Source: Streptomyces celluloflavus (GTDB taxonomy: Bacteria; Actinomycetota; Actinomycetes; Streptomycetales; Streptomycetaceae). From it: 64,000 nt of DNA. The stretch's first letter is position 1, and every line of letters starts with the position of its first letter. Under the pieces are notes generated by a model that worked only from the letters and a program-made list of their open reading frames with translations, was not told the origin of the DNA and searched no databases. The DNA lies in assembly GCA_000720995.1 (NCBI GenBank), contig JOEL01000023.1, forward strand, positions 23,672 to 87,671, read 5' to 3'. Shown here piece by piece: positions 3,359-64,000 of this stretch. Position numbers and translations under genes: made by a program.

Positions 3359-4047
3359 CCCCGACCGCGCTGATCAGGTGGGTGGCCGCACAGTGCCTGT
3401 GCTACCCGGACGAGCGGCTCCTGCGCGAGCAGCTGCCGCTCATGCGGGAGGCGCTGGCGGAGCTGGCGGGGCCCTCCGCGGCGCCGGAGCACACGCGGTC
3501 GCCGAGTTCGCCGGAGTCTGCGGGGGACGCGGCCGCCGGCCTGCCCGCCTTCCTCGACCACCTCGCGGCCACCCCGGAACTGGACCTGGCCGCCCACTAC
3601 GTCGCCACCTTCGACAGCCGCAACCGCCGCTGCCTGTATCTGACGTGGTGGACGACGGGCGACACCCGCAACCGCGGCGCGGCGCTGGTCGCCGTGAAGG
3701 ACTTCTACCGGCGATACGGCATGGCGGGTGACTTCGGCGGCGAACTGCCCGACTTCCTGCCGGTGATGCTGGAGTTCGCCGCGCTCGCCGGCGATGCGGC
3801 GGGCACGGAGCTGCTGGACGGGCACCGCGCCGGACTGGAGCTGCTGCGGCTGTCGGTCGAGCAGAGCGGCTCCCCGTACGCCGCCGTGCTGCGGGCCGTC
3901 TGCGGCACGCTGCCCGGCCCGTCCCCGCGCACCCGCGAGGAGGCCAAGGCGCTGGCCCGCAGCGGCCCCCCGCAGGAGCTGGTCGGTATCGACCTCGCGC
4001 CCGCCCCGATCCCGGCAAGTGCCCTGTGGCAGAAGGTGACGTCATGA
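3355..4047 (+). CDS. narJ: Nitrate reductase assembly chaperone NarJ
   Basis: NarJ is a cytoplasmic TorD-like helical chaperone that inserts the Mo cofactor and attaches NarGH to NarI; it is not part of the final enzyme. 230 aa. Typical features are the early CLCYPDE segment and the LYLTWWTTGDTRNRG block followed by ADFLP-like sequence (ELPDFLPVMLEFAAL). ATGA overlaps exist at both ends, with narH (3355-3358) and narI (4044-4047). A low-complexity insert (residues about 38-60) separates the first helices; this is common in Streptomyces homologues. Confidence 0.95.
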   Translation: MTPTALIRWVAAQCLCYPDERLLREQLPLMREALAELAGPSAAPEHTRSPSSPESAGDAAAGLPAFLDHLAATPELDLAAHYVATFDSRNRRCLYLTWWTTGDTRNRGAALVAVKDFYRRYGMAGDFGGELPDFLPVMLEFAALAGDAAGTELLDGHRAGLELLRLSVEQSGSPYAAVLRAVCGTLPGPSPRTREEAKALARSGPPQELVGIDLAPAPIPASALWQKVTS

Positions 4048-4778
4048 ACACCCTGGACTGGATGCTGTGGGGGGTCTTCCCCTATGTCGCCGTCGTCGTG
4101 ATGGTCACCGCCATCGTCTGGCGGGCCCGCTACGACCGCTTCGGGTGGACCACCCACTCGTCGCAGTTCCGTGAGTCGCGGCTGCTGCGCATCGGCAGCC
4201 CGCTCTTCCACTACGGCATGCTCTTCGTCATCCTCGGGCACCTGGTGGGGCTCGTGATCCCCGCGTCGTGGACCGGCGCGGCCGGGCTGAGCGAGCACGC
4301 GTACCACCTGATGGCGGTCGTCACGGGCACGCTGGCGGGCGCCTGCGCGGTCGCCGGCCTCGGCATCCTCGTCTACCGCCGGCTCACCGTCCCCGCGGTG
4401 CGCCGGTCCACGCTGGGCAGCGACCATCTGATGTACACGCTGCTGATCGCCGCGATGCTGGCCGGTCTGACGGCGACCGTGCTGGTGCAGATCGCCGGTG
4501 TGGGCGGCGAGGACTACAACTACCGGGAGGGCATCTCGGTGTGGTTCCGGAGCCTGTTCGTCCTCCGGCCTGAGGTGGCGCTGATGGCGGCCGCCCCGAT
4601 GGCCTTCAAGGTGCACATCCTGCTGGGCTTCGGCCTGCTGCTGCTCGCACCGTTCACCCGCCTGATGCATGTCGTCGCCCTGCCGGTGCAGTACCTCTTC
4701 CGGCCGTACGTCGTCTACCGCAGCCGCCGGACGCCGGCGGGGCAGCCGCGGCGGCAGCTGTCGGGACGCAACCGGTAG
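4044..4778 (+). CDS. narI: Nitrate reductase gamma subunit NarI (cytochrome b)
   Basis: Membrane subunit that oxidises quinol and passes electrons to NarH. 244 aa with five predicted membrane helices, starting with MLWGVFPYVAVVVMVTAIVW. Candidate haem-ligand histidines are visible in helix 2 (LFHYGMLFVILGHLVG) and in the last helix (FKVHILLGFGLLLLAPFTRLMHV). The start overlaps narJ by four bases; an in-frame upstream start at 4026 would lie inside narJ and lacks support. The operon ends at a strong hairpin 23 bases downstream. Confidence 0.96.
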   Translation: MNTLDWMLWGVFPYVAVVVMVTAIVWRARYDRFGWTTHSSQFRESRLLRIGSPLFHYGMLFVILGHLVGLVIPASWTGAAGLSEHAYHLMAVVTGTLAGACAVAGLGILVYRRLTVPAVRRSTLGSDHLMYTLLIAAMLAGLTATVLVQIAGVGGEDYNYREGISVWFRSLFVLRPEVALMAAAPMAFKVHILLGFGLLLLAPFTRLMHVVALPVQYLFRPYVVYRSRRTPAGQPRRQLSGRNR

Positions 4779-4801
4779 TTGCCAGCGGGGGCGAGAACCA
4801 T

Positions 4802-4843
4802 ACGCCGACCGGCAGGGCCTCAAGGGGCCGCGCCGGTCGGCGT
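4802..4843. terminator. Bidirectional terminator between narI and the ECF sigma gene
   Basis: Perfect 12-bp inverted repeat (ACGCCGACCGGC and its complement) around an 18-base loop, lying between two converging genes. No long T-run follows, which is usual for Streptomyces terminators. Confidence 0.8.
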
Positions 4844-4849
4844 CCGTGT

Positions 4850-6430
4850 TCACTGCCAGGTGCAGATCCAGACAAGCGTCGAACCCCACCAGTGCCAGCC
4901 GCAGTGCAGGGACGAGGTGGGGTCGGGCGACGGCTCCGCCGTGGGCGGGACGGGGACGCTCGGCGTCGGGTCCGTGGGGGTGAAGGTGGGCGTGGGAACC
5001 GACGGGGTGGGGGTCGGCGGCCGGGGCGTCACCGTCGGCGCCGCCGTGGGGCCGCTCGTCGGACCGGTGGTCGGACCGCTCGTCGGACCGGTCGTCGGGC
5101 TGGGCGGCGGAGCTCCTGTCGGCGCGGCCGTCTGGGCGGACACCGAGGGATTCGGCGTCAGTCCCGGCGTTCCCGGCTCGGCCGGGGCGAGCGGCAGGAG
5201 GGGCGACGGCAGGGACGGTATGGCGGCCACGGAACGCGAGGGCGTCGGCTCGCTCCGCCAGGACTGCGGCTGATCCCCCGACGGGCCCGCTCCCTGTGCA
5301 CCGCCCGCCGCGGTGCCCGGCCCGCCACCCGGCGCGCCTCCGGTTCCCCCGCCCGACGCCCCTCCCGGCGGGGCGGGCTGCGGGGGCTCACCGCCACCGC
5401 TGTGCGACGGAGCCGCAGCCCGCTGCTGGGCGGCGCCGGGGTCGTTGCCGGTCAGGGCGAGCCCCGCGGCGACCGCCGCCCCGGCCACCGCCACCACCCC
5501 GACCCCGGCGACCGTCACGGCGAGCGGTCCGGCCTGGCGGACCTGGCCGCGCAGCAGATGCCGTACGGACCGCTGCGCCACCTTGAGCGCGCCGCCCCCG
5601 GAGGGGGGTGTGCCCGAGCCCGCGGCGGCGGCTCCGGTACCGGCCAGCGCCAGCAGGAACTTCGCCGAACCGCTCGTCAGGAACACCAGCAGCGCGGGGC
5701 CGGTGAGCGCCGGCAGCCGGTGGTTGGCGTGGGCCAGCAGCCTCATCCTGCCGTGGCAGTCCGGGCAGTCCAGGAGATGGCTGTCGACGTCGCCGGCCTG
5801 CTTGTCGGTGGCCTCGCCCCGGACGAACGCGGGCATCCGCTCCCAGTACGCGGCGCACGCCGGATTGTCCGGTGCGCCGGGCATCGTGCGCAGGAACGCC
5901 TGCCGCATCCCCTCGCGCGCCCGGTGCAGCAGCACCGCGGTCGCGCCCTTTCCGGCGCCGATCGCCTTGCCGACCGCCTCCAGCGACTGGTCCTCGGCCT
6001 CGGCCAGCCACAGTGCCTTCACCCAGCGCTGCGGCAGCTGGTCGAGGACCCTGGCGAGCAGATCGACATAGGCGATGCGCTGCATCGGGTCGGTGTCCGG
6101 GGCGGATTCGGCGGCCTCGGGCCAGGCGTGGCCGCCCTCCGGGTCGCGCGGGATCTCGCGGGCGGCGTTGGCGCCGACCGTGGTGGCGAGGTGGCGGATG
6201 GTGGTGCGCAGATACGCCGGGATGTTGTCGATGTGGTGGCCGCCCTGGATCCGTCGCCAGACGCGGAAATGGGCCTCGGCGACGAGGTCTTCGGCGAGCC
6301 AGGCGTTCGAGGTCAGTGAGCGGGCGTAGCCGACCAGACGGGGGTGCTCCTGTTCATAGAGCGCGGCGTAGGCGTCCGCCGGCGACTCCTCACAAGCCAC
6401 AACGGCGACATCGGGCACGGCATCTGACAT
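4850..6430 (-). CDS. ECF sigma factor fused to anti-sigma zinc finger, membrane segment and proline-rich tail
   Basis: 526 aa, about three times the length of a simple ECF sigma. Residues about 20-180 carry sigma region 2 (YEQEHPRLVGYARSLTSN, then LAEDLVAEAHFRVWRRI) and region 4 (LDQLPQRWVKALWLAE). Around 200-235 there is an HLLDCPDC motif (H-x3-C-x2-C), the signature of zinc-binding anti-sigma domains. Two hydrophobic stretches follow (ALLVFLTSGSAKFLLALAG and AVTVAGVGVVAVAGAAVAAG). A long Pro/Thr/Ser/Gly tail with GPTSGPTTG repeats then ends in an aromatic block, HCGWHWWGSTLVWICTWQ. I infer a membrane-tethered sigma factor kept inactive by its own domain until released; the outside tail may sense the cell envelope. 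It diverges from the SALP gene at 6671. ATG at 6430. Confidence 0.88.
   Translation of the reverse strand: MSDAVPDVAVVACEESPADAYAALYEQEHPRLVGYARSLTSNAWLAEDLVAEAHFRVWRRIQGGHHIDNIPAYLRTTIRHLATTVGANAAREIPRDPEGGHAWPEAAESAPDTDPMQRIAYVDLLARVLDQLPQRWVKALWLAEAEDQSLEAVGKAIGAGKGATAVLLHRAREGMRQAFLRTMPGAPDNPACAAYWERMPAFVRGEATDKQAGDVDSHLLDCPDCHGRMRLLAHANHRLPALTGPALLVFLTSGSAKFLLALAGTGAAAAGSGTPPSGGGALKVAQRSVRHLLRGQVRQAGPLAVTVAGVGVVAVAGAAVAAGLALTGNDPGAAQQRAAAPSHSGGGEPPQPAPPGGASGGGTGGAPGGGPGTAAGGAQGAGPSGDQPQSWRSEPTPSRSVAAIPSLPSPLLPLAPAEPGTPGLTPNPSVSAQTAAPTGAPPPSPTTGPTSGPTTGPTSGPTAAPTVTPRPPTPTPSVPTPTFTPTDPTPSVPVPPTAEPSPDPTSSLHCGWHWWGSTLVWICTWQ
5048..5100 (-). repeat. In-gene tandem repeat encoding the GPTSGPTTG tail
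   Basis: Direct repeats of a GTCGGACCG(C/G)T-type unit within the ECF sigma gene. They encode alternating GPTS/GPTT tetrapeptides in the presumed extracytoplasmic tail. The unit length is a multiple of three, so copy number could vary without a frameshift. Confidence 0.75.
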
Positions 6431-6570
6431 GGCGGCACAACCCCTGATATATCACCCCGGCGGTCCGGCTCCGCACCTCATGGTGAGCACGGCCCGGACC
6501 ACTGGACCATCGGCACATTGCTTGGGTTTCGCAAGCGTAAGGAGGCCATATTCTCTCATTCAAAGTTGCG

Positions 6571-6584
6571 TGACACAGGTCACG
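6571..6584. promoter_or_regulatory. Crp-like site upstream of the first SALP gene
   Basis: GTGACACAGGTCAC fits the Streptomyces Crp-type pattern GTG-N6-GNCAC and is symmetric (CGTGAC-N4-GTCACG). It ends 86 bases before the SALP start. A related site sits the same distance upstream of the second SALP gene (15463-15476). Binding is inferred only. Confidence 0.5.
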
Positions 6585-6670
6585 TTGGAATCCGGTGTAC
6601 TGGCGTAATGCCCCGGTCGTCATAGTGGTCATAGGGGAAAGGATCCGCACCGAATGCAAGGGAGCCGGCG

Positions 6671-7084
6671 ATGTCCACCGCCATCGACCAAGCCGTCCAC
6701 GCCCGCCTCATCGCGACCGCACCACAATCACGGATGATCCCGGCGGCCCTGCGCTACGACCGCACCGACCCGTTCGCGGTGCGCGTGGTGTTTCCCCCCA
6801 TCGCCTCACTGGACGGGGCGGAGGCGGAGTGGTCCTTCGCCCGCGACCTGCTGGAGGCGGGGCTGCGAGAGCCCTCCGGGACGGGCGATGTCCACATCTG
6901 GCCGTGCGGCCCGGACGCCACGATGCTGGAGTTCCACACCGCCGACGGGGTGGCGATGGTGCAGTTCGGCACGTGGGATCTCTGGCACTTCCTGGCCCGG
7001 TCGTACGAACTCGTCCCGAAAGGCGGCGAAATGCACCACCTCGATGTGGACGGCGATCTCGCCGCGCTGCTGCGCGGCGCCTAG
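6671..7084 (+). CDS. SsgA-like (SALP) sporulation and cell-division regulator, copy 1
   Basis: 137 aa, the usual SALP length. SALPs are actinomycete-specific proteins that help position septa and guide peptidoglycan synthesis and spore-wall maturation. The sequence shows the family pattern: an N-terminal VHARLIATAP segment, LRYDRTDPFAVRVVFP, WSFARDLLEAGL and the LEFHTADGVAMVQF block. ATG at 6671 follows an AGGGAG-like ribosome site (GCAAGGGAGCCGGCG). A closely similar 137-aa paralogue lies at 15565. I cannot say which SsgA-G class it belongs to. A strong terminator follows at 7106. Confidence 0.93.
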   Translation: MSTAIDQAVHARLIATAPQSRMIPAALRYDRTDPFAVRVVFPPIASLDGAEAEWSFARDLLEAGLREPSGTGDVHIWPCGPDATMLEFHTADGVAMVQFGTWDLWHFLARSYELVPKGGEMHHLDVDGDLAALLRGA

Positions 7085-7105
7085 GCCGCCTGCGGCCGGC
7101 TCAGG

Positions 7106-7160
7106 TGCGGCTTCGGGTTCCCGCCCGACGGACTCCGCCCGGCGGGAACCCGAAGCCGCA
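7106..7160. terminator. Very strong terminator after SALP copy 1
   Basis: Perfect 20-bp inverted repeat (arms 7106-7125 and 7141-7160) with a 15-base loop. It lies between the SALP gene and the converging MFS gene and probably serves both. Confidence 0.88.
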
Positions 7161-7221
7161 TACGTCCGTTATCGGTTGTGCGAGGGCGAGCGGCAGCGGC
7201 CGCCCGGCCGAGATGCTCGGG

Positions 7222-7257
7222 CCCGTCAGCCCGTCAGCCCGTCAGCCCGTCAGCCCG
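7222..7257. repeat. 8-bp tandem repeat across the MFS stop codon
   Basis: Four copies of CCCGTCAG in a row plus a partial fifth. The stop codon of the minus-strand MFS gene (7242-7244) lies inside. Because 8 is not a multiple of 3, slippage would change the C-terminus. Confidence 0.85.
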
Positions 7258-8498
7258 GTGGGCGCGGTCTGCGTGGCGGCGGCCGGCTGTGCGTTCGCGC
7301 GGCGGTCCAGCCGGGCGTCGGTCAGCGCCGCGCCGAGCGAGACCAGTCCGAGCGCGGCGCCCACCCAGCCGACCGAAGGGAGCCCGAGGCCGGCGCCGAT
7401 GGCCAGGCCGCCCAGCAGCGGCGCCACCGTGATCCCCAGCTGCATCGCCGAGACATTGGTCGCCCCGGCCAGGGTCGGCGCGCCGACCGCGATCGTGAAC
7501 ACCCGGGAGAGCACCGGCGGGTTGACGAGGAATCCGGTCAGTCCGAGCAGGAACACCAGCGGGACCGTGGCCGCCAGGTGGCTGCCCAGCAGGGCCAGTG
7601 CGACGGAGACGACGACCATGCCGAGGATCCCGGCGTACAGCGTCGGGAAGGGGTGCCGGTCCGAGGTCCGGCCGCCGATGGTCAGCCCGGCGAAGGCGCC
7701 GATCCCGAACAGCGCCAGCACGGCCGGCACCCAGCCGGCGGGCAGTCCGCCGCTGTCGGTCAGCAGCGCGCCCAGGTAGCTGAACGACACCATGTACGCC
7801 GCAGTGGTCAGCATGGTGTTGCCGTAGGCCACCCAGAGCCTGGGCCGGGCCATCGCGCGCAGCTCGGCGCCCCGGTCGGGAGCCGCCTCCTTGCCGCGGT
7901 CGGTGCCGGGCATCGTCAGCCGCACCGCGATCGCGGTCGCCGCGGTCAGCGCGGCCACCGCCCAGAACCCCGCGCGCCATCCGGAGTGTTCACCGATCAG
8001 GGTGCCGGCCGGACCACCGGCGACCATGGCCAGGCTCAGCCCGGTGACCACCACCGACAGCGCCCTGGCGGTGCGGTCCGGCGGGACCATGCGGATCGCG
8101 GTCGCCGACGCGACCGCCCAGAACCCGGCGTACGCCACTCCGCTGACCGCGCGGGCGGCCACCAGCGCCCCGTACCCGGGTATGAGCAGGCCGAACGCGA
8201 TGGCGACGACGAAGAGCGTCTGGCAGACCAGCAGGGTGGTGCGCGGAGGCCACCGCAGGGTGAGCACGGCCAGCGGCGGGGCGCCCAGCAGCACACCGGC
8301 CGCGAACGCGGAGATCAGCGTGCCGGCCGTCGGCAGCGACACCTGGAGGTCACCGGCGATGTCCAACAGCACGCCGACGATCAGGAACTCCGAGGTGCCC
8401 ATGGCGAAGAGGCTCAGGCCGAGCAGGTAGACCGCGAGGGGTATCCCGCGTCGCGCCGTGCTCTGCTCGTTCACGCTGTCTCCGGGTGCTGAGGTCAT
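7242..8498 (-). CDS. MFS drug/metabolite exporter (DHA1, AraJ/YdhP-like)
   Basis: 418 aa with about 12 hydrophobic segments. The first helix LAVYLLGLSLFAMGTSEFLIVGVL is the hallmark of the AraJ/CmlR-like DHA1 exporters, as is the DLQVSLPTAGTLISAFAAGV block. The start at 8498 (MTSAPGDSVNEQ) was chosen over the longer frame at 8639 because the extra 47 residues are low-complexity and a GAGAGA-type ribosome site precedes it. It is transcribed away from the XRE-cupin regulator at 8943, the likely controller. The substrate is unknown. The stop codon sits in an 8-bp tandem repeat. Confidence 0.88.
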   Translation of the reverse strand: MTSAPGDSVNEQSTARRGIPLAVYLLGLSLFAMGTSEFLIVGVLLDIAGDLQVSLPTAGTLISAFAAGVLLGAPPLAVLTLRWPPRTTLLVCQTLFVVAIAFGLLIPGYGALVAARAVSGVAYAGFWAVASATAIRMVPPDRTARALSVVVTGLSLAMVAGGPAGTLIGEHSGWRAGFWAVAALTAATAIAVRLTMPGTDRGKEAAPDRGAELRAMARPRLWVAYGNTMLTTAAYMVSFSYLGALLTDSGGLPAGWVPAVLALFGIGAFAGLTIGGRTSDRHPFPTLYAGILGMVVVSVALALLGSHLAATVPLVFLLGLTGFLVNPPVLSRVFTIAVGAPTLAGATNVSAMQLGITVAPLLGGLAIGAGLGLPSVGWVGAALGLVSLGAALTDARLDRRANAQPAAATQTAPTGLTG

Positions 8499-8942
8499 GG
8501 CAGGGTCTCTCTCTTGTCTTGCCGGTGCGGTGTGGTGCGTGTGGTACGGGCAGGGGCTGTGGGTACGGGACGGGCGGGCCCGGAGCCTGCCGTCGGGCCG
8601 GGTGGCGGGCGGTGACCGGGGCGTTTCCGCACGGTGCACGACATCGGACGGGCACGGCGGCCGGGGCAGCGGGCTCGCGGGCGTCCGTCCGACCGTCGGT
8701 CAGCTCCGCGCCGTACGCGGCGGCCCCGGCCCGCCGGGGCCGCCCCCGCGGAAGCACCACCGGCGCGGGGTGCGGAGCGGCCGTGCCCACGACGGCCGCG
8801 ACGACACATCCGGATTTCCGTGGCCGTCTCACTCATCGCGATCACCTCCGACAGGGCCTGGCTGATCCGCAGAGTGCTGCGGGTGGCAAGTTCGCGACGA
8901 TATTTGTTGCCGTTTCCGGGACGGACGCGGTGCAATGGAGAG
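8499..8942. promoter_or_regulatory. Divergent promoter region of the MFS exporter and XRE-cupin regulator
   Basis: 444 bases without a convincing gene. It contains an AT-richer patch near 8885-8911 with a GGCAA-N17-TTGCC dyad, a possible operator for the adjacent regulator. The longer ORFs crossing it are arginine/proline-rich shadow frames. Confidence 0.5.
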
Positions 8943-9626
8943 GTGGAACACTCTCCTGCCATCGCCCAGGCCCTGACCGAAGTCGGCCCCCGCCTCAAGC
9001 GTCTGCGTACCCAGCGCAGCGTCACACTGGCGGCGCTGTCCGAGGCCACCGGCATCTCCAAGAGCACCCTGTCCCGGCTGGAATCCGGCCAGCGCCGCCC
9101 CAGCCTGGAGCTGCTGCTGCCCATCGCCCAGGCCCACCAGGTCCCCCTCGACGAACTCGTCGGTGCCCCCGAGGTCGGCGACCCCCGTATCCGCCTCGCC
9201 GCCAAGCAGGTGAACGGCAATATGGTCCTGCCCCTGACCCGGCAGCCCGGTCCGCTCCAGACCTTCAAAATGGTGATCCCGGAGACCCAGAACACGCCCG
9301 AGGTGTGCACCCATGAGGGCTATGAGTGGGTCTATGTCCTCTCCGGACGGCTGCGGCTGATCCTGGCCGATCACGATCTGGTCCTGGACGCCGGTGAGGC
9401 CGCCGAGTTCGACACCCGGCTGCCGCACTGGTTCGGCAGCACCGGGCACGGCGCCGTCGAACTCCTCAGCCTCTTCGGCCGGCAGGGCGAACGCATGCAC
9501 GTCCGCGCCAGGCCCCACCGGCGCCAGAAGCCCGGCCATGAGACGGGCCGTGAACCGGGCCATGGGCACGGCCACGACCACAACCACCACCACAATCCGG
9601 GCCACAGCCACAGTCACGGCCACTGA
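8943..9626 (+). CDS. XRE-family regulator with C-terminal cupin domain and His-rich tail
   Basis: About 227 aa from GTG 8943. The N-terminus is a helix-turn-helix (RLKRLRTQRSVTLAALSEAT, then SKSTLSRLESGQRRPSLELL). Residues about 95-170 are a small cupin (EWVYVLSGRLRLILADHDLV, then GEAAEFDTRLPHWFG). This MutR/SutR-like layout usually senses a small ligand and controls a neighbouring transporter. The last 30 residues are dominated by His and Gly (GHGHGHDHNHHHNPGHSHSH), suggesting metal binding or a metal-linked signal. GAGAGG lies directly before the GTG, which is unusually close, so the start is uncertain. It is divergent from the MFS exporter. Confidence 0.87.
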   Translation: MEHSPAIAQALTEVGPRLKRLRTQRSVTLAALSEATGISKSTLSRLESGQRRPSLELLLPIAQAHQVPLDELVGAPEVGDPRIRLAAKQVNGNMVLPLTRQPGPLQTFKMVIPETQNTPEVCTHEGYEWVYVLSGRLRLILADHDLVLDAGEAAEFDTRLPHWFGSTGHGAVELLSLFGRQGERMHVRARPHRRQKPGHETGREPGHGHGHDHNHHHNPGHSHSHGH

Positions 9627-9629
9627 CCC

Positions 9630-9659
9630 GGCGTCGGTTCCCGGCCTGTCTCCGACGCC
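9630..9659. terminator. Hairpin after the XRE-cupin gene
   Basis: 8-bp inverted repeat GGCGTCGG/CCGACGCC with a 14-base loop, a few bases after the stop codon. Confidence 0.6.
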
Positions 9660-9922
9660 GCGACCGGCCCGCGGACCTGCCCGGTTCCCGGCGCGGTGAA
9701 GGCAATCCTTCGGTCGTCCCTTCGGCGGCACCGTATTGAGGCCGCCGTCCGTCGCTTCTATCTTCTGGCGAGGACACCGGCACAACGACCATGAACCAAC
9801 CGCCAAGCGCCGCGCACGAGTTGCTGTCCCGGGACAGCGAGCGCCCGCCGGGCGGTGTACCTCGCCGCCACCCGAACCGGGTTCGCGTCGTGGACAACGG
9901 ATGGCCAATCGGAGGTGGCACG

Positions 9923-10387
9923 ATGACGGACACAGTTCCCACCATGTACGAATGGATCGGCGGCGCGGAGCGGCTGGAGCGGCTGACCGAGGAGTTCTAC
10001 CGGCGGGTCCGCGAGGACGAGGTACTCGCCCCGCTTTTCGCCCGCATGGCGGATGACCACCCCCAGCATGTCGCGGTCTGGCTCGGCGAGGTCTTCGGCG
10101 GGCCGGAAGCCTATACCGAGGGGCACGGCGGTTTTCCGCACATGCTCTCCCGGCACCGCGGCCGGGGCATCCGGCCGGAACAGCGGGAGCGCTGGGTGAA
10201 ACTCTTCATGGAGGCCGCCGACCACGTCGGAGTGCCCACCGACGCGGAATTCCGGTCCGCGTTCGTGGGCTATATCGAGTTCGGCTCGCGCCGCGCCATG
10301 GCCAATTCGCAGCTGGACGCGAAGCCGGGCACCCGGGAAACCATCAAGACCTGGGGCTGGGGCGAGGCGCCCCCCGGCACCGACTGA
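9923..10387 (+). CDS. Truncated haemoglobin, group II (trHbO/GlbO-like)
   Basis: 154 aa. Group II truncated globins bind O2 and react with NO and peroxides, and are linked to respiration and nitrosative stress in actinobacteria. Visible features: TMYEWIGGAERLERLTEEFY with the B10 tyrosine, GGFPHMLSRHRG with the proximal histidine, and RWVKLFMEAAD with the G8 tryptophan typical of group II. ATG 9923 follows GGAGGTG at 9911; the longer frame from 9791 has a low-complexity leader and was rejected. Having nitrate reductase in the same window gives a plausible NO source. Confidence 0.94.
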   Translation: MTDTVPTMYEWIGGAERLERLTEEFYRRVREDEVLAPLFARMADDHPQHVAVWLGEVFGGPEAYTEGHGGFPHMLSRHRGRGIRPEQRERWVKLFMEAADHVGVPTDAEFRSAFVGYIEFGSRRAMANSQLDAKPGTRETIKTWGWGEAPPGTD

Positions 10388-11142
10388 TCTCCGCCGGTCC
10401 CGTCCCTCAGCGGCGACGGGACGGCCGGGCCGAGGCGTCGGCGTGCGACATCGGGGGCGGACGGGCGGGACCGCGGGCGCGGTACGGCGCCGGGCGGCGG
10501 CTCGTCCGCCGGGCTCGCCGCGCCCGGACACCGCACCGGACGGACACCGGGCAGCCGCGCGGGGCGTCGGGGAGCCGACGGCGCTCCGCGCGGTGTGCCG
10601 GGTACGCACGTCACGGGCCGGCTCCACGGAAATCCTTCGGCCGCCGAACTCCCGGCGGTATCCGACGAGTTCACTTCAGGGCGCGTGAATCCGGTCGGGC
10701 AGCTGACACACGGCTGGGCGTCGCGCCGACGAGCGGGGCCACGGTGGGGATGCGAGTCCGCCTCGCCCGGTCGTTGCGCGGGCTCCCGACGAGGCGGGGG
10801 CCATCGAGCACGACAGCAGGTCGTGGACCCGGGGCCGGCCGCGCCGTCGACGAGCCGCCGACCACGCGGGCGTGGATGCCACGGGCCGGATCGGGCTGGC
10901 TCGGGAGATCCAGCCCGAGCATGTCGCGGCGTGGCGGCCGCCCTGCTCGCGACGGGCCGTCGCACCGTCCCGCTCAGCCCGCTGCATCCGCCCGGCCGAG
11001 GCACAGGCCCCAGAACCCGGCCGGAGCGCGGGTACGCCATCGGCGGCCTCGAACTCGGCTGACCGGTACGGCGCGGCGGTGACTCCCGCCGCCCGCGCCG
11101 GAGCCCGCGACCAGCACAGCACGGACATCGAGAGGACCAGAG
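10388..11142. other. 755-base region with no convincing gene
   Basis: Both strands carry open frames here, but they are rich in Arg/Pro/Gly, lack domains and overlap each other, as expected for shadow frames at this GC. I see no RNA gene. The last 40 bases hold the ribosome site of the methyltransferase. It may be decayed sequence or a long regulatory region. Confidence 0.5.
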
Positions 11143-58602: not shown

Positions 58603-58830
58603 CCTCCTCCGAGGCGTCCGTCCCTGGTCAGGCTTCCCGGACGGCGCCACGGGGCTACGCCCAGTCTGCACGGTCGCGTACGTGACCGTGTACCGGGGTG
58701 GGCTGGCGCGGTCGGGGACCTGTTTATGCAAGGACACGCATAGTCGTGTTCACGCATAGACGCGTAGCGCTACCCCCTCTACTGTCGTTGGCCAGGCGGC
58801 CCAAACGGGGCCAGAGCAAGGGGGTTTGGC

Positions 58831-59040
58831 ATGGCCGAACGTTCGGCACTCACCCGGCTCACGGGCAACGGCAACGGCGAGTGCGGAGAGAAGGACTGTC
58901 CGAACGTGTACCGCACGGCTACCGGATCGTTCGTGGTGCAGGGCGACGTGTCCGCCGCCTTCACCCCGCCTGCTGGGGAAGGGCTCGTGGAAATCCCGGA
59001 GGCGGTTCTCAGGGAGGCAATCCGTGCACTTGGATGGTGA
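58831..59040 (+). CDS. Small hypothetical protein upstream of the DUF6879/XRE pair
   Basis: 69 aa. ATG 58831 follows AAGGGGG. Sequence includes GECGEKDCPNVYRTATGSFV and VQGDVSAAFTPPAGEGLVEI, with a Cys pair near residue 18-23. Its position before DUF6879 and XRE-DUF5753 genes resembles the small DUF397-like partners of WhiJ loci, but the sequence is different. It overlaps the next gene by 17 bases. Confidence 0.75.
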   Translation: MAERSALTRLTGNGNGECGEKDCPNVYRTATGSFVVQGDVSAAFTPPAGEGLVEIPEAVLREAIRALGW

Positions 59041-59536
59041 CGCGTGGAATGACTGCTTCGATTCCATGGAGCGTGAGGCGTGGCGACTGGAAACGCTGCC
59101 CGTCTACACCATGCCCCAGGAGGCGGAGAAGGTGAAGCGCTTCCTCGCCGGGGAGAAATCCCCGGACGATTACACGTCGGCCTGGATGGACGAGGTTCGG
59201 CAATGGGCCTCGGAAGGGAAGAGCGTCGGCAGGGTGCACGTCGTGACCCGCCCACTCTCGGACTACCTCCGGTTCGAGTTCGAGTATTACTACCGGCACC
59301 ACGTGAAGGCGGGCGAGAATATCCGAATTCTCGACCTCACCGAGCGGGCGAACCCGGGGCTTCCGGATCAGGATTTCTGGATTTTCGATGAGTCCAAGGT
59401 GGTCCGGATGAACTACCGGGCGGACGGGACACAGATCAACCGGGAACTGTACGAGGGTGATCCTGACCCGTATAGGCAGTGGAAGCGGATTGCCGTTAAC
59501 GAGTCGGTTCCATTCCTGGAGTACGTGAGCGGGTGA
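59024..59536 (+). CDS. DUF6879-family protein
   Basis: 170 aa from GTG 59024 after GGGAGG. The family blocks are FDSMEREAWRLETLPVY, DEVRQWASEGKSVGRVHVV, LSDYLRFEFEYYYRHHVKAG and DFWIFDESKVVRMNY. Such proteins recur next to XRE-DUF5753 regulators in Streptomyces and probably work with them. The stop overlaps the regulator GTG. GC is lower than in the chromosomal core. Confidence 0.85.
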   Translation: MHLDGDAWNDCFDSMEREAWRLETLPVYTMPQEAEKVKRFLAGEKSPDDYTSAWMDEVRQWASEGKSVGRVHVVTRPLSDYLRFEFEYYYRHHVKAGENIRILDLTERANPGLPDQDFWIFDESKVVRMNYRADGTQINRELYEGDPDPYRQWKRIAVNESVPFLEYVSG

Positions 59537-60366
59537 CGTTCGACCCTGAACAGTTGGGGCAGCCGAAGCAAGAATTGGCCGCCCTGCTGAAAGAACTACG
59601 CAAGCGAGCCGGCCTCACTGGGGACCGGCTCGCTCGGCGTTGCAACATGTCCCAATCGAAGATCAGTCGGATCGAGAACGGGAAAGCGCAACCGAGCCTG
59701 CTCGACCTGGAGAGAATCCTCCGGGCTGTCGTTGCTCCGCCCGAGGTCATCGAGGAGGTCATTGCCCTCGCGAGGCTGGCCAATACCGAGTGGCAAGACC
59801 TGCGCTCGCTGCGGCGAAGGGGGCTGGAGAAGAAGCAGACCGAACTTGCCGCGCTCGAATCCTCCTCTACGGAGTTCCGTTTCTTCCTGCTCTCGATGAT
59901 TACGGGACTGCTGTCCACCCCTGAGTACATCCGGGCCAGCCTTGCCCATTCACCGACTGATGTCACTAAGACGATCGCGAGAAAATTGGAGCGACAGGAG
60001 GTTCTTTACGACACGAAGAAGCAGTTCTCCTTCATCCTCACCGAACAGGCCGTGAGGTGGCCACTACTGCCCCCGGCCGCGATGGCGATGCAGATTGACC
60101 GGCTGGCCTCATTGACCTACCTGCCGAATGTGAAGCTCGGTGTCATCCCAATCGCGGGATACAAGCCCATAGTCCCGATGGACACCTTCACTGTCTACGA
60201 CAACACCCTGGCCACTGTGGAGAACACCACCGGAGTCGTGATCCTGAGAGATCCACGCGACATCGAAATGCATTTGGAGCTGTTCTCGACACTGGAGGGG
60301 TACGCACTGTTCGGGGCCGAAGCGCGAGCCTTGTTGACGGAGTGGGCTGCCGCCTGCCGTTCATGA
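59533..60366 (+). CDS. XRE regulator with DUF5753-like domain (second WhiJ-type locus)
   Basis: 277 aa from GTG 59533. HTH: LLKELRKRAGLTGDRLARRC, then NMSQSKISRIENGKAQPSLL. Effector part: LLSTPEYIRASLAHSPTD, LTEQAVRWPLLPPAAMAMQI and PNVKLGVIPIAG. Translationally coupled to the DUF6879 gene. It lies directly upstream of the small ORFs and the peptide-modification cassette and may regulate them. Confidence 0.92.
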   Translation: MTFDPEQLGQPKQELAALLKELRKRAGLTGDRLARRCNMSQSKISRIENGKAQPSLLDLERILRAVVAPPEVIEEVIALARLANTEWQDLRSLRRRGLEKKQTELAALESSSTEFRFFLLSMITGLLSTPEYIRASLAHSPTDVTKTIARKLERQEVLYDTKKQFSFILTEQAVRWPLLPPAAMAMQIDRLASLTYLPNVKLGVIPIAGYKPIVPMDTFTVYDNTLATVENTTGVVILRDPRDIEMHLELFSTLEGYALFGAEARALLTEWAAACRS

Positions 60367-60700: not shown

Positions 60701-60796
60701 TGCCCCTTGCGGTCCGACAACCGCCGCACTCGTCGCTGTCCCCGTTTGCTTCCTGCCGGATTCCCGGTAGGAGTTCCCGAGAAGAGAGGTAGTCCG

Positions 60797-60934
60797 ATGG
60801 TGGAGGAAAACATCGGTTCGGTGGCCCCCGCTGGGGGTGGCCTGCCTATCGCGAAGCGGAAGATCGTGGCTGCACGCACTCGCGCCGAGCAGGAGTCGGA
60901 CAACACCAGTGGCCGTTCCGACGGCAACGACTGA
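60797..60934 (+). CDS. 45-aa peptide, candidate RiPP precursor or small regulatory peptide
   Basis: ATG 60797 follows GAGAGG at good spacing. The peptide runs MVEENIGSVAPAGGGLPIAK, then a basic RKIVAARTR patch, then an acidic/polar tail ending GRSDGND. It stops 14 bases before a JmjC/cupin-4 oxygenase gene, followed by a reductase and a kinase-fold gene with overlapping ends. A gene this small at the head of such an operon is the usual place for a precursor peptide. No cysteines, so not a lanthipeptide-type core. I know no family match. Confidence 0.6.
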   Translation: MVEENIGSVAPAGGGLPIAKRKIVAARTRAEQESDNTSGRSDGND

Positions 60935-60948
60935 CGGGAGCGCCCACG

Positions 60949-62136
60949 GTGCTTGACGCAGCCTCGTGGGCGAGGCGTCTGGGCGGGGACAGGTTCCTCG
61001 CCCAGACGTACCACCGCTCCTACGCACACTTCCCCAGCGCCGTCGACACGGCGGGGCTCTTCTCCTGGGACGACCTGAACCGGATCATCGCCACACAGCG
61101 GCTGGAGCCGCCCCGGCTCCGCCTGTCGGCTGACGGTGAGATGGTGCCGCTCCACCGCTACGCGATCCCGACCACGAACCGCCGAGCGGTCACCTGGTCC
61201 CGTATCCAGCCGTCCGACTTCCATGCGCAGCTCAGAGACGGGGCGTCGTTGGTTCTCGATGCGGTGGAGAAGATCCACCGGCCCGTAGGCGTGGCTGCCG
61301 AAGAGTTGGAACGCTTCCTCGGAACTCCCGTTCAGACCAACGTCTACGCCTCGTGGACTGAGCGGGAGGGGTTCGGCCGGCACTGGGACGACCATGACGT
61401 GATCGTGGTTCAGTTGCACGGCTCGAAGCGATGGCGCCTGTGGGGGATGACCCGTGAGGCGCCCACCTTCCGGGACGTGGAGCCGCCAGAGGAACCGGAG
61501 GTCGACCCTGTGGCGGACCTCGTTCTGTCCCCGGGTGACGTGCTCTACCTGCCGCGCGGTTGGTGGCACGCGGTCACCGCCGACCAGGGAACGGAATCGC
61601 TGCACCTGACGTTCGGCTTGGTCCCGCACACAGGTGCCGACCTAATGCTCTGGGTCGTCGATCAGCTCCGGGCCTCTCTCGCACTCCGCAGGGACATTCC
61701 ACGCTTCGGGTCGTTGGCGCAGCAGTCGGACTTCATCGATGCCATACGCCGTGAGGTGGCCGACATGATGACGGACCCGCGCCTCGTGGAGCAGTGGGCG
61801 GAGTCGATCGACACGACCGACCTGGGCCACGCGATTCCCTCGCTCCCGTACGTGGACGGGCTCCCCGCACGATCGGAGATCACGGTCAAGCTCACCGCGC
61901 CGAGGGGCCGCCTGACGGCGAACCCCGAGCAGAACACAGTCACCTTCTCGGCGGCCGGTACTGCATGGGACTTCGCCGAGTCCGCAACGCCCGCGCTGGG
62001 CACACTGCTGACCAACCGGCCGACCACACTCGGTGAGATGGCCGACTCCGCCGGACTGGAAGTCAAGGACGTGGCCGAACTGGTCTCGACCCTCATCGAA
62101 GGCCATGCCGTCGCAGTCGTGGGGACCGCGCTGTGA
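60949..62136 (+). CDS. JmjC/cupin-4-type Fe(II)/2-oxoglutarate oxygenase (ROX-like)
   Basis: 395 aa from GTG 60949 (GGGAG eight bases upstream). The core DSBH has the metal triad H145, D147 (GFGRHWDDHD) and H207 (LPRGWWHAVT), with the QLHGSKRWRLWG segment typical of cupin-4 ribosomal-protein hydroxylases (YcfD/MINA-like). The C-terminal winged-helix-like part (about 280-395) resembles the dimer/substrate domain of that family. These enzymes hydroxylate Arg or His side chains in proteins; here the neighbouring peptide is a natural candidate substrate (inference). The stop overlaps the next GTG. Confidence 0.9.
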   Translation: MLDAASWARRLGGDRFLAQTYHRSYAHFPSAVDTAGLFSWDDLNRIIATQRLEPPRLRLSADGEMVPLHRYAIPTTNRRAVTWSRIQPSDFHAQLRDGASLVLDAVEKIHRPVGVAAEELERFLGTPVQTNVYASWTEREGFGRHWDDHDVIVVQLHGSKRWRLWGMTREAPTFRDVEPPEEPEVDPVADLVLSPGDVLYLPRGWWHAVTADQGTESLHLTFGLVPHTGADLMLWVVDQLRASLALRRDIPRFGSLAQQSDFIDAIRREVADMMTDPRLVEQWAESIDTTDLGHAIPSLPYVDGLPARSEITVKLTAPRGRLTANPEQNTVTFSAAGTAWDFAESATPALGTLLTNRPTTLGEMADSAGLEVKDVAELVSTLIEGHAVAVVGTAL

Positions 62137-63038
62137 CCGCCGTGCTCTCCCTTGGGACATACCGCGTGCGTGCCGTCAGCCAGGCGGCACGCACCGCCCT
62201 GGCCGCCGGTAGCCCCTGGGTGGACACGGCACCCAACTACGCCCATGGTCGGGCGCATGAGGAGTTGAGCCCACTCCTGGGGGAGTACCCGACCGTTCGA
62301 GTAGCCACGAAGACGGGGTTCTTCACTGCGGAACAAGGGTGCAGAGCTCTGGCTGACGGCGTGCTCACCCAGGGCGAGTCGGCTGGTAGGCACAGCCTTG
62401 AACGGGGCTTCGTCCGCTGGCAGACGGAGCGTTCGTTGGCCGCGCTCGGCCGCGTGGACATGGTCTTCGTGCACAACCCGGAGCATCACGCACACGACTG
62501 TGACCGTGCCGCTCTCCTCGGGCGTGTGCGGGAAGCCTTCGCAGCGCTGGAAGAGTTCGCCCATGCGGGCAGGATCGGCGGGTACGGCGTCGCCACATGG
62601 TCGGGCATGGGCTCCGAAGCCTTCACTGTTTCCGAGTTGCTCGCGCTCGCCCGGCAGGCGGCAGGCTCCGCCGGACATCACTTCACGGGCTTGCAGGTGC
62701 CCGTCAGCCTGGTCATGGATGACGTGATCAGGCAGGCACTCGACGGCGGTGGACCGCTGGTGCAGGCGAAGGACGCGGGGGTGATCACGTTCGGCTCGGC
62801 CCCCCTGCACGGGGGCGAACTCCTCGACGCCATGACACCCGAACTGGTGAACCTCATCCGCCCCGGCCTGTCAGCCGCAGCCGCTGCCCTGCTGGCCGCT
62901 GGCTCGTGCCCTGGCCTCGATGTTGTCCTGAGTTCAGCGAGCACTCGCGAGCACTGGGACGATGTAGCCAAGGCTCTGGCTGCGCCTCTGACGGCCCAGG
63001 AACTCAGGAAGGTAACGGATGAACTCGCCTCTGAATGA
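62133..63038 (+). CDS. Aldo/keto reductase of the peptide cassette
   Basis: 301 aa from GTG 62133, overlapping the oxygenase stop. Shorter than classical AKRs, but the tetrad is present: D31, Y36 (VDTAPNYAHG), K60 (VATKTGF) and H114 (VFVHNPEH). The C-terminal cofactor loop is divergent (VVLSSASTREHWDDV). It overlaps the kinase-fold gene by 20 bases, so the three enzymes are made together. Confidence 0.88.
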   Translation: MTAVLSLGTYRVRAVSQAARTALAAGSPWVDTAPNYAHGRAHEELSPLLGEYPTVRVATKTGFFTAEQGCRALADGVLTQGESAGRHSLERGFVRWQTERSLAALGRVDMVFVHNPEHHAHDCDRAALLGRVREAFAALEEFAHAGRIGGYGVATWSGMGSEAFTVSELLALARQAAGSAGHHFTGLQVPVSLVMDDVIRQALDGGGPLVQAKDAGVITFGSAPLHGGELLDAMTPELVNLIRPGLSAAAAALLAAGSCPGLDVVLSSASTREHWDDVAKALAAPLTAQELRKVTDELASE

Positions 63039-63873
63039 GGAGGTACAGGCCCTGATGGAGGCCGCCCACAACCGGGCGGCCAAGGCTCTGGGTCTCACCT
63101 GCACGGGGCCGCTGGCATGGGGCTTCCTCGGCGTCACCCTCGGGCGCCGAGCGGGGGACCGGTGGCTACGGGTCAGCCGATCAGCGAAGAGGAACGCGGG
63201 CAGGAAGCGGGGGGAAGGCATCGTGGGAGCCTCCCTGTTCGTACCCGAAGGCGTTCCGCGCCCCCGCCTGTACGGGGTGCACGACTGGACTGACGACGAG
63301 TGGGCTTTCGAGGCGGAAGTCCTGGACTACGTGACGCAGCCCGTGGTGTCCCCGCATCGGGCCGACATCGACAACGACCCGGGGTTGCCGGATGAGTGGT
63401 GGACGGACCTTCGCCAAGCCCTTGCCCTGCTCACTGAGGCCGAGGGGGTGAAGGTGACCGTCCGGGACGGGTGGATTGAGCGGGCCTTCCCTCAGTTCCT
63501 CGGTATCCCGGCCCCCGTCAAGGTGGAGCGGGTGACCGGTCATGGTGATCTGCACTGGGGCAACCTCACCGGCGCACCCCTGTGCCTGTTGGACTGGGAG
63601 CGGTGGGGGCTGGTGCCCCTGGGCTACGACGCGGGCCTCCTCCACGTCAACAGCTTGCTTGTCCCTGACGTGGCCGACCGTATCCGGCAGGAGTTCGCTG
63701 CGGTCCTGGACACCCCCGCTGGCCGAATCGGAGAACTCGCAGCCCTGGCGGAGATGCTGCAAGCCGTAGCCCGTGGCTGGTACTCCGACCTTGCGCCCCA
63801 CCTCGTTGCCCGCGCGGAAGCCCTCACTGGAGTGCGCCCGCCCGTCCCCGTGCACTCCGAGGTGAGCGCCTGA
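63019..63873 (+). CDS. APH-fold phosphotransferase of the peptide cassette
   Basis: 284 aa from ATG 63019 (GGAAGG upstream). Kinase-fold motifs: catalytic loop HGDLHWGN (H175, D177, N182) and the metal aspartate LLDWERWG (D192). The N-lobe nucleotide loop is weak (WGFLGVTLGRRAGDRWLRVS). Related APH proteins phosphorylate small molecules, antibiotics or, in class V lanthipeptide pathways, Ser/Thr of peptides. Its overlap with the reductase gene ties it to the cassette. Confidence 0.88.
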   Translation: MNSPLNEEVQALMEAAHNRAAKALGLTCTGPLAWGFLGVTLGRRAGDRWLRVSRSAKRNAGRKRGEGIVGASLFVPEGVPRPRLYGVHDWTDDEWAFEAEVLDYVTQPVVSPHRADIDNDPGLPDEWWTDLRQALALLTEAEGVKVTVRDGWIERAFPQFLGIPAPVKVERVTGHGDLHWGNLTGAPLCLLDWERWGLVPLGYDAGLLHVNSLLVPDVADRIRQEFAAVLDTPAGRIGELAALAEMLQAVARGWYSDLAPHLVARAEALTGVRPPVPVHSEVSA

Positions 63874-63894: not shown

Positions 63895-64000
63895 TCAGGC
63901 ACTGTCGGCAAGGTGCCGGTAGAGGGTGGCCCGGTGCACTCCGAGCGCCTTGGCGATGGCGGTGACGCTCTCTCCCTTGGCGTAGCGGGCACGGGCTACG
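63895..64000 (-). CDS. Serine recombinase/resolvase, C-terminal end (partial, runs off window)
   Basis: The minus strand reads ARARYAKGESVTAIAKALGV followed by HRATLYRHLADSA and a stop at 63895-63897. This is the Hin/resolvase C-terminal HTH (normally ...VAEIAALLGVSRATLYRHL). The catalytic domain is beyond the window. It converges on the cassette and supports a mobile setting. Confidence 0.85.
   Translation of the reverse strand, partial: VARARYAKGESVTAIAKALGVHRATLYRHLADSA

What the first reader, a model, noticed from the sequence alone, without database searches (positions are those of the whole stretch)
60797..63873. Undescribed cassette: 45-aa peptide + JmjC/cupin-4 oxygenase + aldo/keto reductase + APH-fold kinase
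Seen: a small peptide gene with a good ribosome site, followed 14 bases later by three enzyme genes with overlapping ends (60949-62136, 62133-63038, 63019-63873). The oxygenase keeps its H145/D147/H207 iron triad, the reductase its tetrad and the kinase HGD/N/D. Known: cupin-4 oxygenases hydroxylate Arg/His in proteins, and APH-fold enzymes can phosphorylate Ser/Thr in peptide natural products. Inference: hydroxylation, redox change and phosphorylation of the peptide, with its basic KRK..RTR patch or polar Ser/Thr/Asp tail as target. I know no RiPP class with this enzyme set. The alternative is a small-molecule pathway with an unrelated small protein.
Basis: partly seen in the sequence, partly recalled or inferred. 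Interest (0 to 1): 0.85.

Follow-up and report, generated by a model that had tools for sequence, protein, structure and literature searches.

The report
Conserved peptide with three modifying enzymes
Soil actinomycetes carry a four-gene cassette that appears to make a tiny peptide and then oxidise and phosphorylate its tail; the tail is nearly constant across distant genera, which points to one dedicated product, still unknown.

Summary
In detail: a 45-aa ORF, JmjC oxygenase, aldo/keto reductase (AKR) and APH-fold kinase lie at the stated coordinates with intact catalytic residues. The cassette is conserved: of 77 named actinomycete loci fetched with the JmjC protein, 71 hold all four genes by my filters, from Streptomyces to Actinomadura and Nocardiopsis; all 77 keep the peptide, a variant or a remnant. 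The peptide is under purifying selection (dN/dS 0.10 tail, 0.12 helix) and splits into a leader helix and a near-invariant tail, SD..(S/T)G..D.ND. A sister class keeps the leader pattern, changes the tail and keeps the three enzyme types (14 of 14 loci read). A kinase paralogue in the same genome closes an FxLD lanthipeptide cluster. Best reading: a new RiPP class, with the JmjC winged helix as likely leader-binding part. The basic patch is variable leader; the Asp/Asn/Ser/Thr tail is the likelier target. Which residues change, and what the product does, are unproven. I found no description of this enzyme set; one 2025 paper mentions bacterial JmjC relatives in RiPP-like contexts.

The parts
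59533..60366 (+). XRE-type regulator (HTH_31 + DUF5753), probable regulator, not conserved as an orthologue across the family
   Evidence: Pfam (DUF5753 1.4e-30, HTH_31 1.7e-17); tblastn one search finds close relatives upstream in the nearest Streptomyces loci, weak or none elsewhere
60784..60789 (+). ribosome-binding site GAGAGG of the peptide gene
   Evidence: sequence; purine-rich sites before most relatives' starts
60797..60934 (+). precursor peptide gene, 45 aa (MVEENIGSVAPAGGGLPIAKRKIVAARTRAEQESDNTSGRSDGND)
   Evidence: dN/dS
60842..60883 (+). leader helix L16-R29 (pattern L..A...I.AAR.R)
   Evidence: alignment of 71 distinct peptides; dN/dS 0.12 for residues 15-33
60896..60931 (+). core/tail S34-D45 (SDNTSGRSDGND)
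   Evidence: S34, D35, G39, D42, N44, D45 in all 71 pattern-selected peptides; dN/dS 0.10
60949..62136 (+). JmjC_2 (ROX-type) Fe(II)/2OG oxygenase, 395 aa, GTG start
   Evidence: Pfam; invariant H145/D147/H207; fold match to NO66, MINA53, YcfD
61849..62133 (+). C-terminal winged-helix domain of the oxygenase, candidate leader-binding (RRE-like) domain
   Evidence: strands then three helices in the model; ROXA-like_wH above cut-off in the orthologue L083 (27.7 bits), no such match in the window protein itself
62133..63038 (+). aldo/keto reductase, 301 aa, full D31/Y36/K60/H114 tetrad
   Evidence: Pfam
63019..63873 (+). APH-fold kinase, 284 aa, HGD/N/D motifs

Best explanation
The cassette is a ribosomal peptide (RiPP) pathway of a class I did not find described. 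The 45-aa peptide is the precursor. Its helix L16-R29 is the leader, read by the enzymes; the winged-helix domain at the C-terminus of the JmjC protein is the likeliest docking site (inferred). The tail S34-D45 is the core. Most likely the JmjC enzyme hydroxylates the beta-carbon of one or more of the invariant Asp/Asn residues (D35, D42, N44, D45), the kinase phosphorylates a Ser/Thr of the core (S34 or the S/T before G39) or the newly made hydroxyl, and the AKR interconverts an alcohol and a carbonyl at or near residue 41. A general protease would then release the tail. Shown here by comparison: the cassette, its gene order, overlapping genes, the peptide's conservation and its two-part layout. 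Inferred: that the enzymes act on the peptide, which residues change, and in what order. The near-constant tail suggests one dedicated product (signal, cofactor or metal ligand) rather than a diversifying antibiotic.
For: 71 of 77 loci hold all four genes by my filters; the JmjC/AKR overlap is 4 nt in 71 of 75 measured, AKR and kinase genes overlap in 71 of 72, and the peptide stop is 8-22 nt before the JmjC start in 71 of 73. Purifying selection on the peptide. A sister class keeps the leader pattern, has different tails and keeps JmjC, AKR and APH (14 of 14 loci read). In a draw of 394 genomes of the class 14 close loci (L214-L227) were read: 13 have the tail, the 14th lacks AKR and keeps a degenerate end; nine of the 14 had not been read before, all nine with the tail. 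Two complete loci that my pattern filter missed (L165, L171) have the peptide when read. In the window's own genome a kinase paralogue closes a cluster with an FxLD lanthipeptide precursor (TIGR04363, 55.7 bits, cut-off 30), LanB (Lant_dehydr_N 1.7e-228), LanC-like and Lant_dehydr_C proteins; two other kinase relatives lie beside radical SAM/SPASM genes. JmjC relatives in Nocardiopsidaceae follow a prolyl oligopeptidase gene and a different short peptide. Precedents: CaoK phosphorylates Ser/Thr of CaoA (PMC9486802, abstract and passages); JmjC enzymes BipG/BpmG in biphenomycin pathways (PMC12707348, PMC12257519, passages). Two separate AKR losses on the JmjC tree both coincide with residue 41 being Gly.
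Against: No mass-spectrometric proof. No protease, exporter or immunity gene was recognised among the gene families shared by at least 3 of 33 class I loci (by eye, mostly not scanned). Gly at position 41 also occurs with AKR kept in a Nocardiopsis clade (L107, L110, L113, L224, L225), so the AKR-residue 41 link is not strict; S34 is kept in two AKR-less loci (L185, L186) and lost in two (L090, L175). The AKR-less peptides L090, L185 and L186 do not keep the full helix pattern (R29 missing). Leader and winged-helix charges correlate (rho -0.60, 33 leaders) but the link nearly vanishes after correction for descent (r -0.08). The core is more conserved than usual for a RiPP. A PDB search with the winged-helix profile gave nothing convincing (best 0.023, not an RRE; the RRE TfuB1 at 0.12). 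Of 13 kinase relatives found without a JmjC neighbour, 10 had no RiPP-type neighbour that I recognised.
Confidence: 0.82

Rival explanations
1. Small-molecule pathway: the three enzymes act on a metabolite and the small ORF is an unrelated protein.
For: AKR and APH-fold enzymes usually act on small molecules (family knowledge; nearest folds are choline and aminoglycoside kinases).
Against: The peptide, a variant or a remnant is present in 77 of 77 loci, keeps a fixed tail under purifying selection, and in the sister class changes its tail while the leader pattern stays. ROX-type JmjC enzymes act on proteins and peptides (family knowledge).
Confidence: 0.06
2. The small ORF is a regulatory upstream peptide (nascent-chain sensor or translational coupler), not an enzyme substrate.
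For: Short, 14 nt from the next gene, overlapping operon, C-terminal end very conserved.
Against: Different JmjC clades pair with quite different tails, including one with a prolyl oligopeptidase gene next to the peptide; a separate helix is conserved as well as the end; in the Nocardiopsidaceae clade the peptide stop is about 60-120 nt from the JmjC start (14 loci).
Confidence: 0.05
3. RiPP-like scaffold: the modified tail is broken down to one or a few residues, as with PQQ or mycofactocin (recalled), and the product is a cofactor or signal. This is a variant of the best explanation, not exclusive of it.
For: The tail is nearly invariant from Streptomyces to Nocardiopsis, unlike diversifying antibiotics; HTH regulators in several neighbourhoods; no exporter recognised.
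Against: No dedicated peptidase recognised in class I; the sister class and the Nocardiopsidaceae clade have different tails.
Confidence: 0.25
4. The kinase makes dehydro-amino acids: phosphorylation then elimination, with the AKR reducing the result, a lanthipeptide-like route without Cys.
For: APH-type kinases of class V lanthipeptides and thioamitides do the first step (PMC9486802, passages); S/T41 is absent where AKR is absent in two lineages; a HopA1-like lyase gene exists elsewhere in the genome (contig C10).
Against: No lyase recognised in the conserved cassette (by eye); the one HopA1-like gene of the genome is on another contig; no Cys in any of the 71 distinct class I peptides.
Confidence: 0.08

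Closest known systems
Class V lanthipeptides and thioamitides (CaoK/LxmK/TvaC kinases)
   Same: APH-fold kinase beside a short precursor gene in actinomycetes
   Different: No HopA1-like lyase or decarboxylase recognised in the cassette, no Cys in the core; JmjC and AKR instead
Biphenomycin RiPPs (BipG/BpmG JmjC hydroxylases; PbsQ cupin)
   Same: JmjC-family oxygenase modifies a ribosomal precursor (BipG described as an alpha-KG/Fe(II) ornithine hydroxylase, PMC12707348 passages)
   Different: No MNIO, B12-radical SAM or arginase recognised here; core lacks the aromatic motif; ROX-like enzyme with winged helix; AKR and kinase present
ROX ribosomal oxygenases (YcfD/RoxA, NO66, MINA53)
   Same: JmjC_2 domain with Fe triad and C-terminal winged helix; best PDB matches by sequence and fold
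   Different: Encoded in a peptide cassette; no conserved His in the peptide, core Arg column is R/K/V, so Asp/Asn is the likelier target
JmjC-RRE fusions mentioned in PMC12710340 (passages)
   Same: PF08007 fused to a winged-helix RRE-like domain; bacterial relatives in RiPP-like contexts
   Different: The passages seen give no precursor family, partner enzymes or classes for the bacterial relatives
PQQ and mycofactocin (recalled)
   Same: Near-constant core, suggesting one dedicated product
   Different: Those use radical SAM enzymes; product here unknown

Membership tests
RiPP pathway | short precursor gene next to modifying enzymes, co-inherited | tested here: met
   71 of 77 loci with all four genes; the rest variant, broken, cut or lost to my filters
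RiPP pathway | leader/core layout | tested here: met
   leader pattern shared by class I and the sister class while tails differ
RiPP pathway | leader-recognition (RRE) domain, three strands then three helices | tested here: inconclusive
   order present in the model, with an extra strand on either side, but the same fold is the known ROX winged helix; PDB profile search not convincing; charge test not robust
RiPP pathway | dedicated protease or exporter (common, not strictly defining) | tested here: inconclusive
   none recognised by eye among families shared by at least 3 of 33 class I loci; a prolyl oligopeptidase gene in 7 of 7 enlarged Nocardiopsidaceae JmjC loci
RiPP pathway | modification of the precursor shown chemically | not testable with these tools
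   needs co-expression and mass spectrometry
Lanthipeptide (class V) | Cys in the core, HopA1-like lyase with the kinase | tested here: not met
   no Cys in 71 of 71 distinct class I peptides; no lyase recognised in the cassette neighbourhoods, the genome's only HopA1 match is on another contig
ROX-type JmjC oxygenase | JmjC_2 domain, HxD...H triad, C-terminal winged helix | tested here: met
Aldo/keto reductase | Asp/Tyr/Lys/His tetrad | tested here: met
   29 of 29 aligned
APH-fold kinase | fold plus HGD...N and Asp | tested here: met
   Pfam APH is below its cut-off for the window protein

The most novel reading that the evidence does not exclude
JmjC_2/winged-helix enzymes define a superfamily of ribosomal pathways that make beta-hydroxylated, in part phosphorylated, Asp-rich peptides; in class I the near-invariant tail yields a single dedicated molecule, perhaps a ribosomally made metal ligand or a cofactor or signal, built with an AKR and an APH kinase, a combination I found in no described RiPP class.
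Probability: 0.22. Interest if true: 0.85.

Novelty: new variant of a known kind. Interest (0 to 1): 0.72.

Why it matters
If true, it adds a RiPP class spread over several actinomycete families, with a compact four-gene test case. It would show that JmjC enzymes of the ribosomal-oxygenase type, known for modifying ribosomal proteins, were recruited to natural-product peptides, and that their winged helix may serve as a leader-binding domain. The constant tail makes the question of a dedicated small molecule directly testable.

Tried and rejected
Leader/winged-helix charge co-variation: raw rho -0.60 but r -0.08 with independent contrasts; dropped as evidence.

JmjC-AKR fusion in L113 (689 aa): a frameshift, since the winged helix reads on in another frame and ends in a stop; rejected.

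Arg or His hydroxylation as for YcfD/NO66: the core Arg column is R 50, K 14, V 7 of 71 distinct peptides; 6 of 71 peptides hold any His and none is in the conserved part. R27 (70 of 71) and R29 (71 of 71) in the leader stay possible.

Siderophore reading of the Nocardiopsidaceae clade: FhuF-like genes and, in three loci, SIP genes and exporter genes lie near, but in one genome two ORFs of NRPS size (identified by eye, not scanned) lie in the same stretch and in two others the FhuF-like gene is several genes away; kept only as a lead.

AKR acting on S34: S34 is kept in two AKR-less loci, so residue 41 fits better, with the Nocardiopsis exceptions.

Limits of the counts. The tail pattern used itself requires the conserved tail letters, so invariance of those letters is partly by selection; the three named loci it missed (L072, L090, L099) were read by eye, and two complete loci it missed (L165, L171) were read. 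In one search, 17 of 109 loci lacked the pattern, 14 of them distant JmjC homologues (28-37%). One search kept the best 80 of 129 candidates (77 loci). dN/dS used 31 loci: 45-aa peptide, JmjC identity at least 75%, 395-aa JmjC. In one search only 30 matches became loci. Loci L134-L163 hold only part of the JmjC gene and were not read for peptides. The five AKR-less loci include one (L184, same genome as L227) with only a degenerate peptide end and one (L175) cut by the contig end inside the peptide.
Full report
What is there. The window holds, on the + strand, a 45-codon ORF (60797-60934), a JmjC_2 protein (60949-62136), an aldo/keto reductase (62133-63038) and an APH-fold kinase (63019-63873), with an XRE/DUF5753 regulator upstream (59533-60366). 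The window ends at the end of its contig.

Is the peptide real. A scan of named genomes with the JmjC protein returned 77 loci (best 80 of 129 confirmed candidates kept). In 71 of 77 all four genes were found by my filters. The six others: L070 and L103 had the kinase rejected by my open-frame filter although a kinase match is there; L072 has the JmjC gene split by about 2.5 kb, with the peptide intact; L090 lacks AKR and has a variant peptide; L091 is cut by the contig end; L099 is degenerate. The JmjC/AKR overlap is 4 nt in 71 of 75 measured, AKR and kinase overlap in 71 of 72, and the peptide stop lies 8-22 nt before the JmjC start in 71 of 73. In 31 Streptomyces loci the peptide has dN/dS 0.26 (first 13 residues 0.61, helix 0.12, tail 0.10; JmjC gene 0.17) and 0.90 nucleotide identity against 0.36 just upstream; pairwise differences by codon position are 1398, 1218 and 3468.

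Layout of the peptide. In an alignment of 71 distinct peptides from 92 loci selected by a tail pattern, L16, R29, S34, D35, G39, D42, N44 and D45 are invariant; I23, A25 and R27 nearly so. The tail residues are affected by the selection pattern; L16, R29 and the helix are not. All 71 have a Ser or Thr between D35 and G39, and none has Cys. The KRK of the window is VED, VEE or VER in Nocardiopsis and Actinomadura relatives, so the patch is not a conserved target. Outside this set, the AKR-less peptides L090, L185 and L186 lack R29.

Sister classes. More distant JmjC proteins (about 30% identity) come with an AKR and a kinase gene, the kinase mostly on the opposite strand (12 of 13, and L181); all 14 loci read have a peptide with a similar leader (for example LLVAVEELTAVHDR) and a different tail, either SDN.GSSGD.PWPGGDGNL.D.E or SD....SAGDDG.NRD..N.P. 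In Nocardiopsidaceae 14 of 16 fetched loci of a further JmjC clade carry a short peptide ending D.DG.D.SSDFI, 62-120 nt before the JmjC start, without AKR or kinase beside it (L241 differs and L243 is cut), and in 7 of 7 enlarged loci a prolyl oligopeptidase gene lies upstream. All these tails are rich in Asp, Gly, Ser and Thr.

How common. In 121 genomes of the window's genus 50 have some JmjC match and 16 a close one (about 46% identity or more, my reading). In 394 genomes of the class 57 have a match at 1e-50 and 14 a close one; of the 14 loci read, 13 have the tail and the 14th lacks AKR and keeps a degenerate end. Five of these genomes had been read before; the other nine all have the tail, some nearly identical to named loci. 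The kinase profile matches 74 of 150 genomes of the family. Cassettes also occur on plasmids, for instance in S. virginiae and S. glaucescens, where peptide and kinase are annotated as hypothetical proteins.

Enzymes. The JmjC model (pLDDT 88) matches NO66, YcfD-like and MINA53 enzymes over most of the chain; sequence search agrees. Its C-terminal domain has strands followed by three helices; ROXA-like_wH is above cut-off in one of five orthologues scanned (L083), not in the window protein. The AKR is nearest to IolS by profile. The kinase model matches choline and aminoglycoside kinases at TM-scores of about 0.40-0.58. No NCBIfam match for the peptide, JmjC, AKR or kinase up to E 1, nor for five relatives' peptides up to E 10.

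Links to RiPPs. In the window's own genome a kinase relative (1e-97 to the profile) closes a cluster with an FxLD lanthipeptide precursor (TIGR04363, 55.7 bits, cut-off 30), LanB (Lant_dehydr_N 1.7e-228), a LanC-like protein and a Lant_dehydr_C/TIGR03891 protein. Two other kinase relatives follow radical SAM/SPASM genes. Of the 13 kinase loci without JmjC looked at, the remaining 10 had no RiPP-type neighbour that I recognised by eye.

A clue to the AKR. Five AKR-less loci (L090, L175, L184, L185, L186) end in GKGDGND, with Gly where S/T41 stands. On a JmjC tree they form two separate groups (support 0.989 for four; L175 apart, support 0.73), so absence of AKR and of S/T41 coincide twice. A Nocardiopsis clade has Gly there with AKR kept, so the link is suggestive only.

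Literature. Searches for the enzyme set, the tail motifs and JmjC with RiPP terms found no description (open-access library only). PMC12710340 (passages only) says the closest bacterial JmjC relatives (about 30%) of RRE-JmjC fusions appeared in RiPP-like contexts. PMC12257519 and PMC12707348 (passages) describe JmjC/cupin hydroxylases in biphenomycin pathways. PMC9486802 (abstract and passages) shows CaoK phosphorylating Ser/Thr. PMC12291118 (passages) describes RosX, a kinase-fold cyclase lacking catalytic residues; here the catalytic motifs are kept. PMC7794033 (passages) links PF01636 proteins to RiPPs. PMC13381572 (passages) reports HprK-like peptide kinases.

Judgement. The RiPP reading is strong on comparative evidence; the chemistry is inference. 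I rate it a new variant of a known kind.

Noticed in passing
L164 (own genome C15), 4024-10573, - strand: FxLD lanthipeptide cluster: precursor (TIGR04363), LanB, LanC-like, Lant_dehydr_C protein, and a relative of the window's kinase at its end.
   Followed up: partly
L005 (own genome C21), 5368-8394, + strand: Second copy of the whole cassette in the same genome, tail SDGGGTGRTDSND.
   Followed up: yes
L072 (S. roseoverticillatus), about 3500-6000: JmjC gene split by about 2.5 kb with a maturase/HNH-like reading by eye, perhaps a group II intron; the peptide is intact.
   Followed up: no
L035, L036, L129, upstream of a distant JmjC homologue: Small ORFs with tandem EGPADGGAAGTPGVHDGGADGGA-like repeats, perhaps multi-core precursors.
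   Followed up: no
L024, L026, upstream of a JmjC homologue: Another conserved peptide (MADNTARNT.EQEFPEVEVKVSPVAERARATFAKTHNRAGVPDFTQMFGDS.K), with no AKR or kinase match nearby.
   Followed up: no
L168, L180: Relatives of the kinase beside radical SAM/SPASM genes; no precursor was recognised.
   Followed up: partly
L244-L250: Prolyl oligopeptidase gene, short acidic peptide and JmjC in Nocardiopsidaceae, with FhuF-like genes in the same stretch and SIP genes in three.
   Followed up: partly
L067, L070, L073, L093, L094, L097, L098, L100, about 1.2-2.5 kb upstream, - strand: A RibD_C-type reductase (scanned in L073 only, 3.5e-38) at a similar place in Kitasatospora-type and Actinomadura-type loci.
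   Followed up: partly
window 63895-64000, - strand: End of a resolvase-type recombinase gene beyond the kinase (HTH_7 1.4e-8); the contig ends here.
   Followed up: partly
window 58826-59536, + strand: DUF6879 protein (5.2e-51) just before the XRE/DUF5753 regulator; similar ORFs stand near the cassette in five other compared loci.
   Followed up: no
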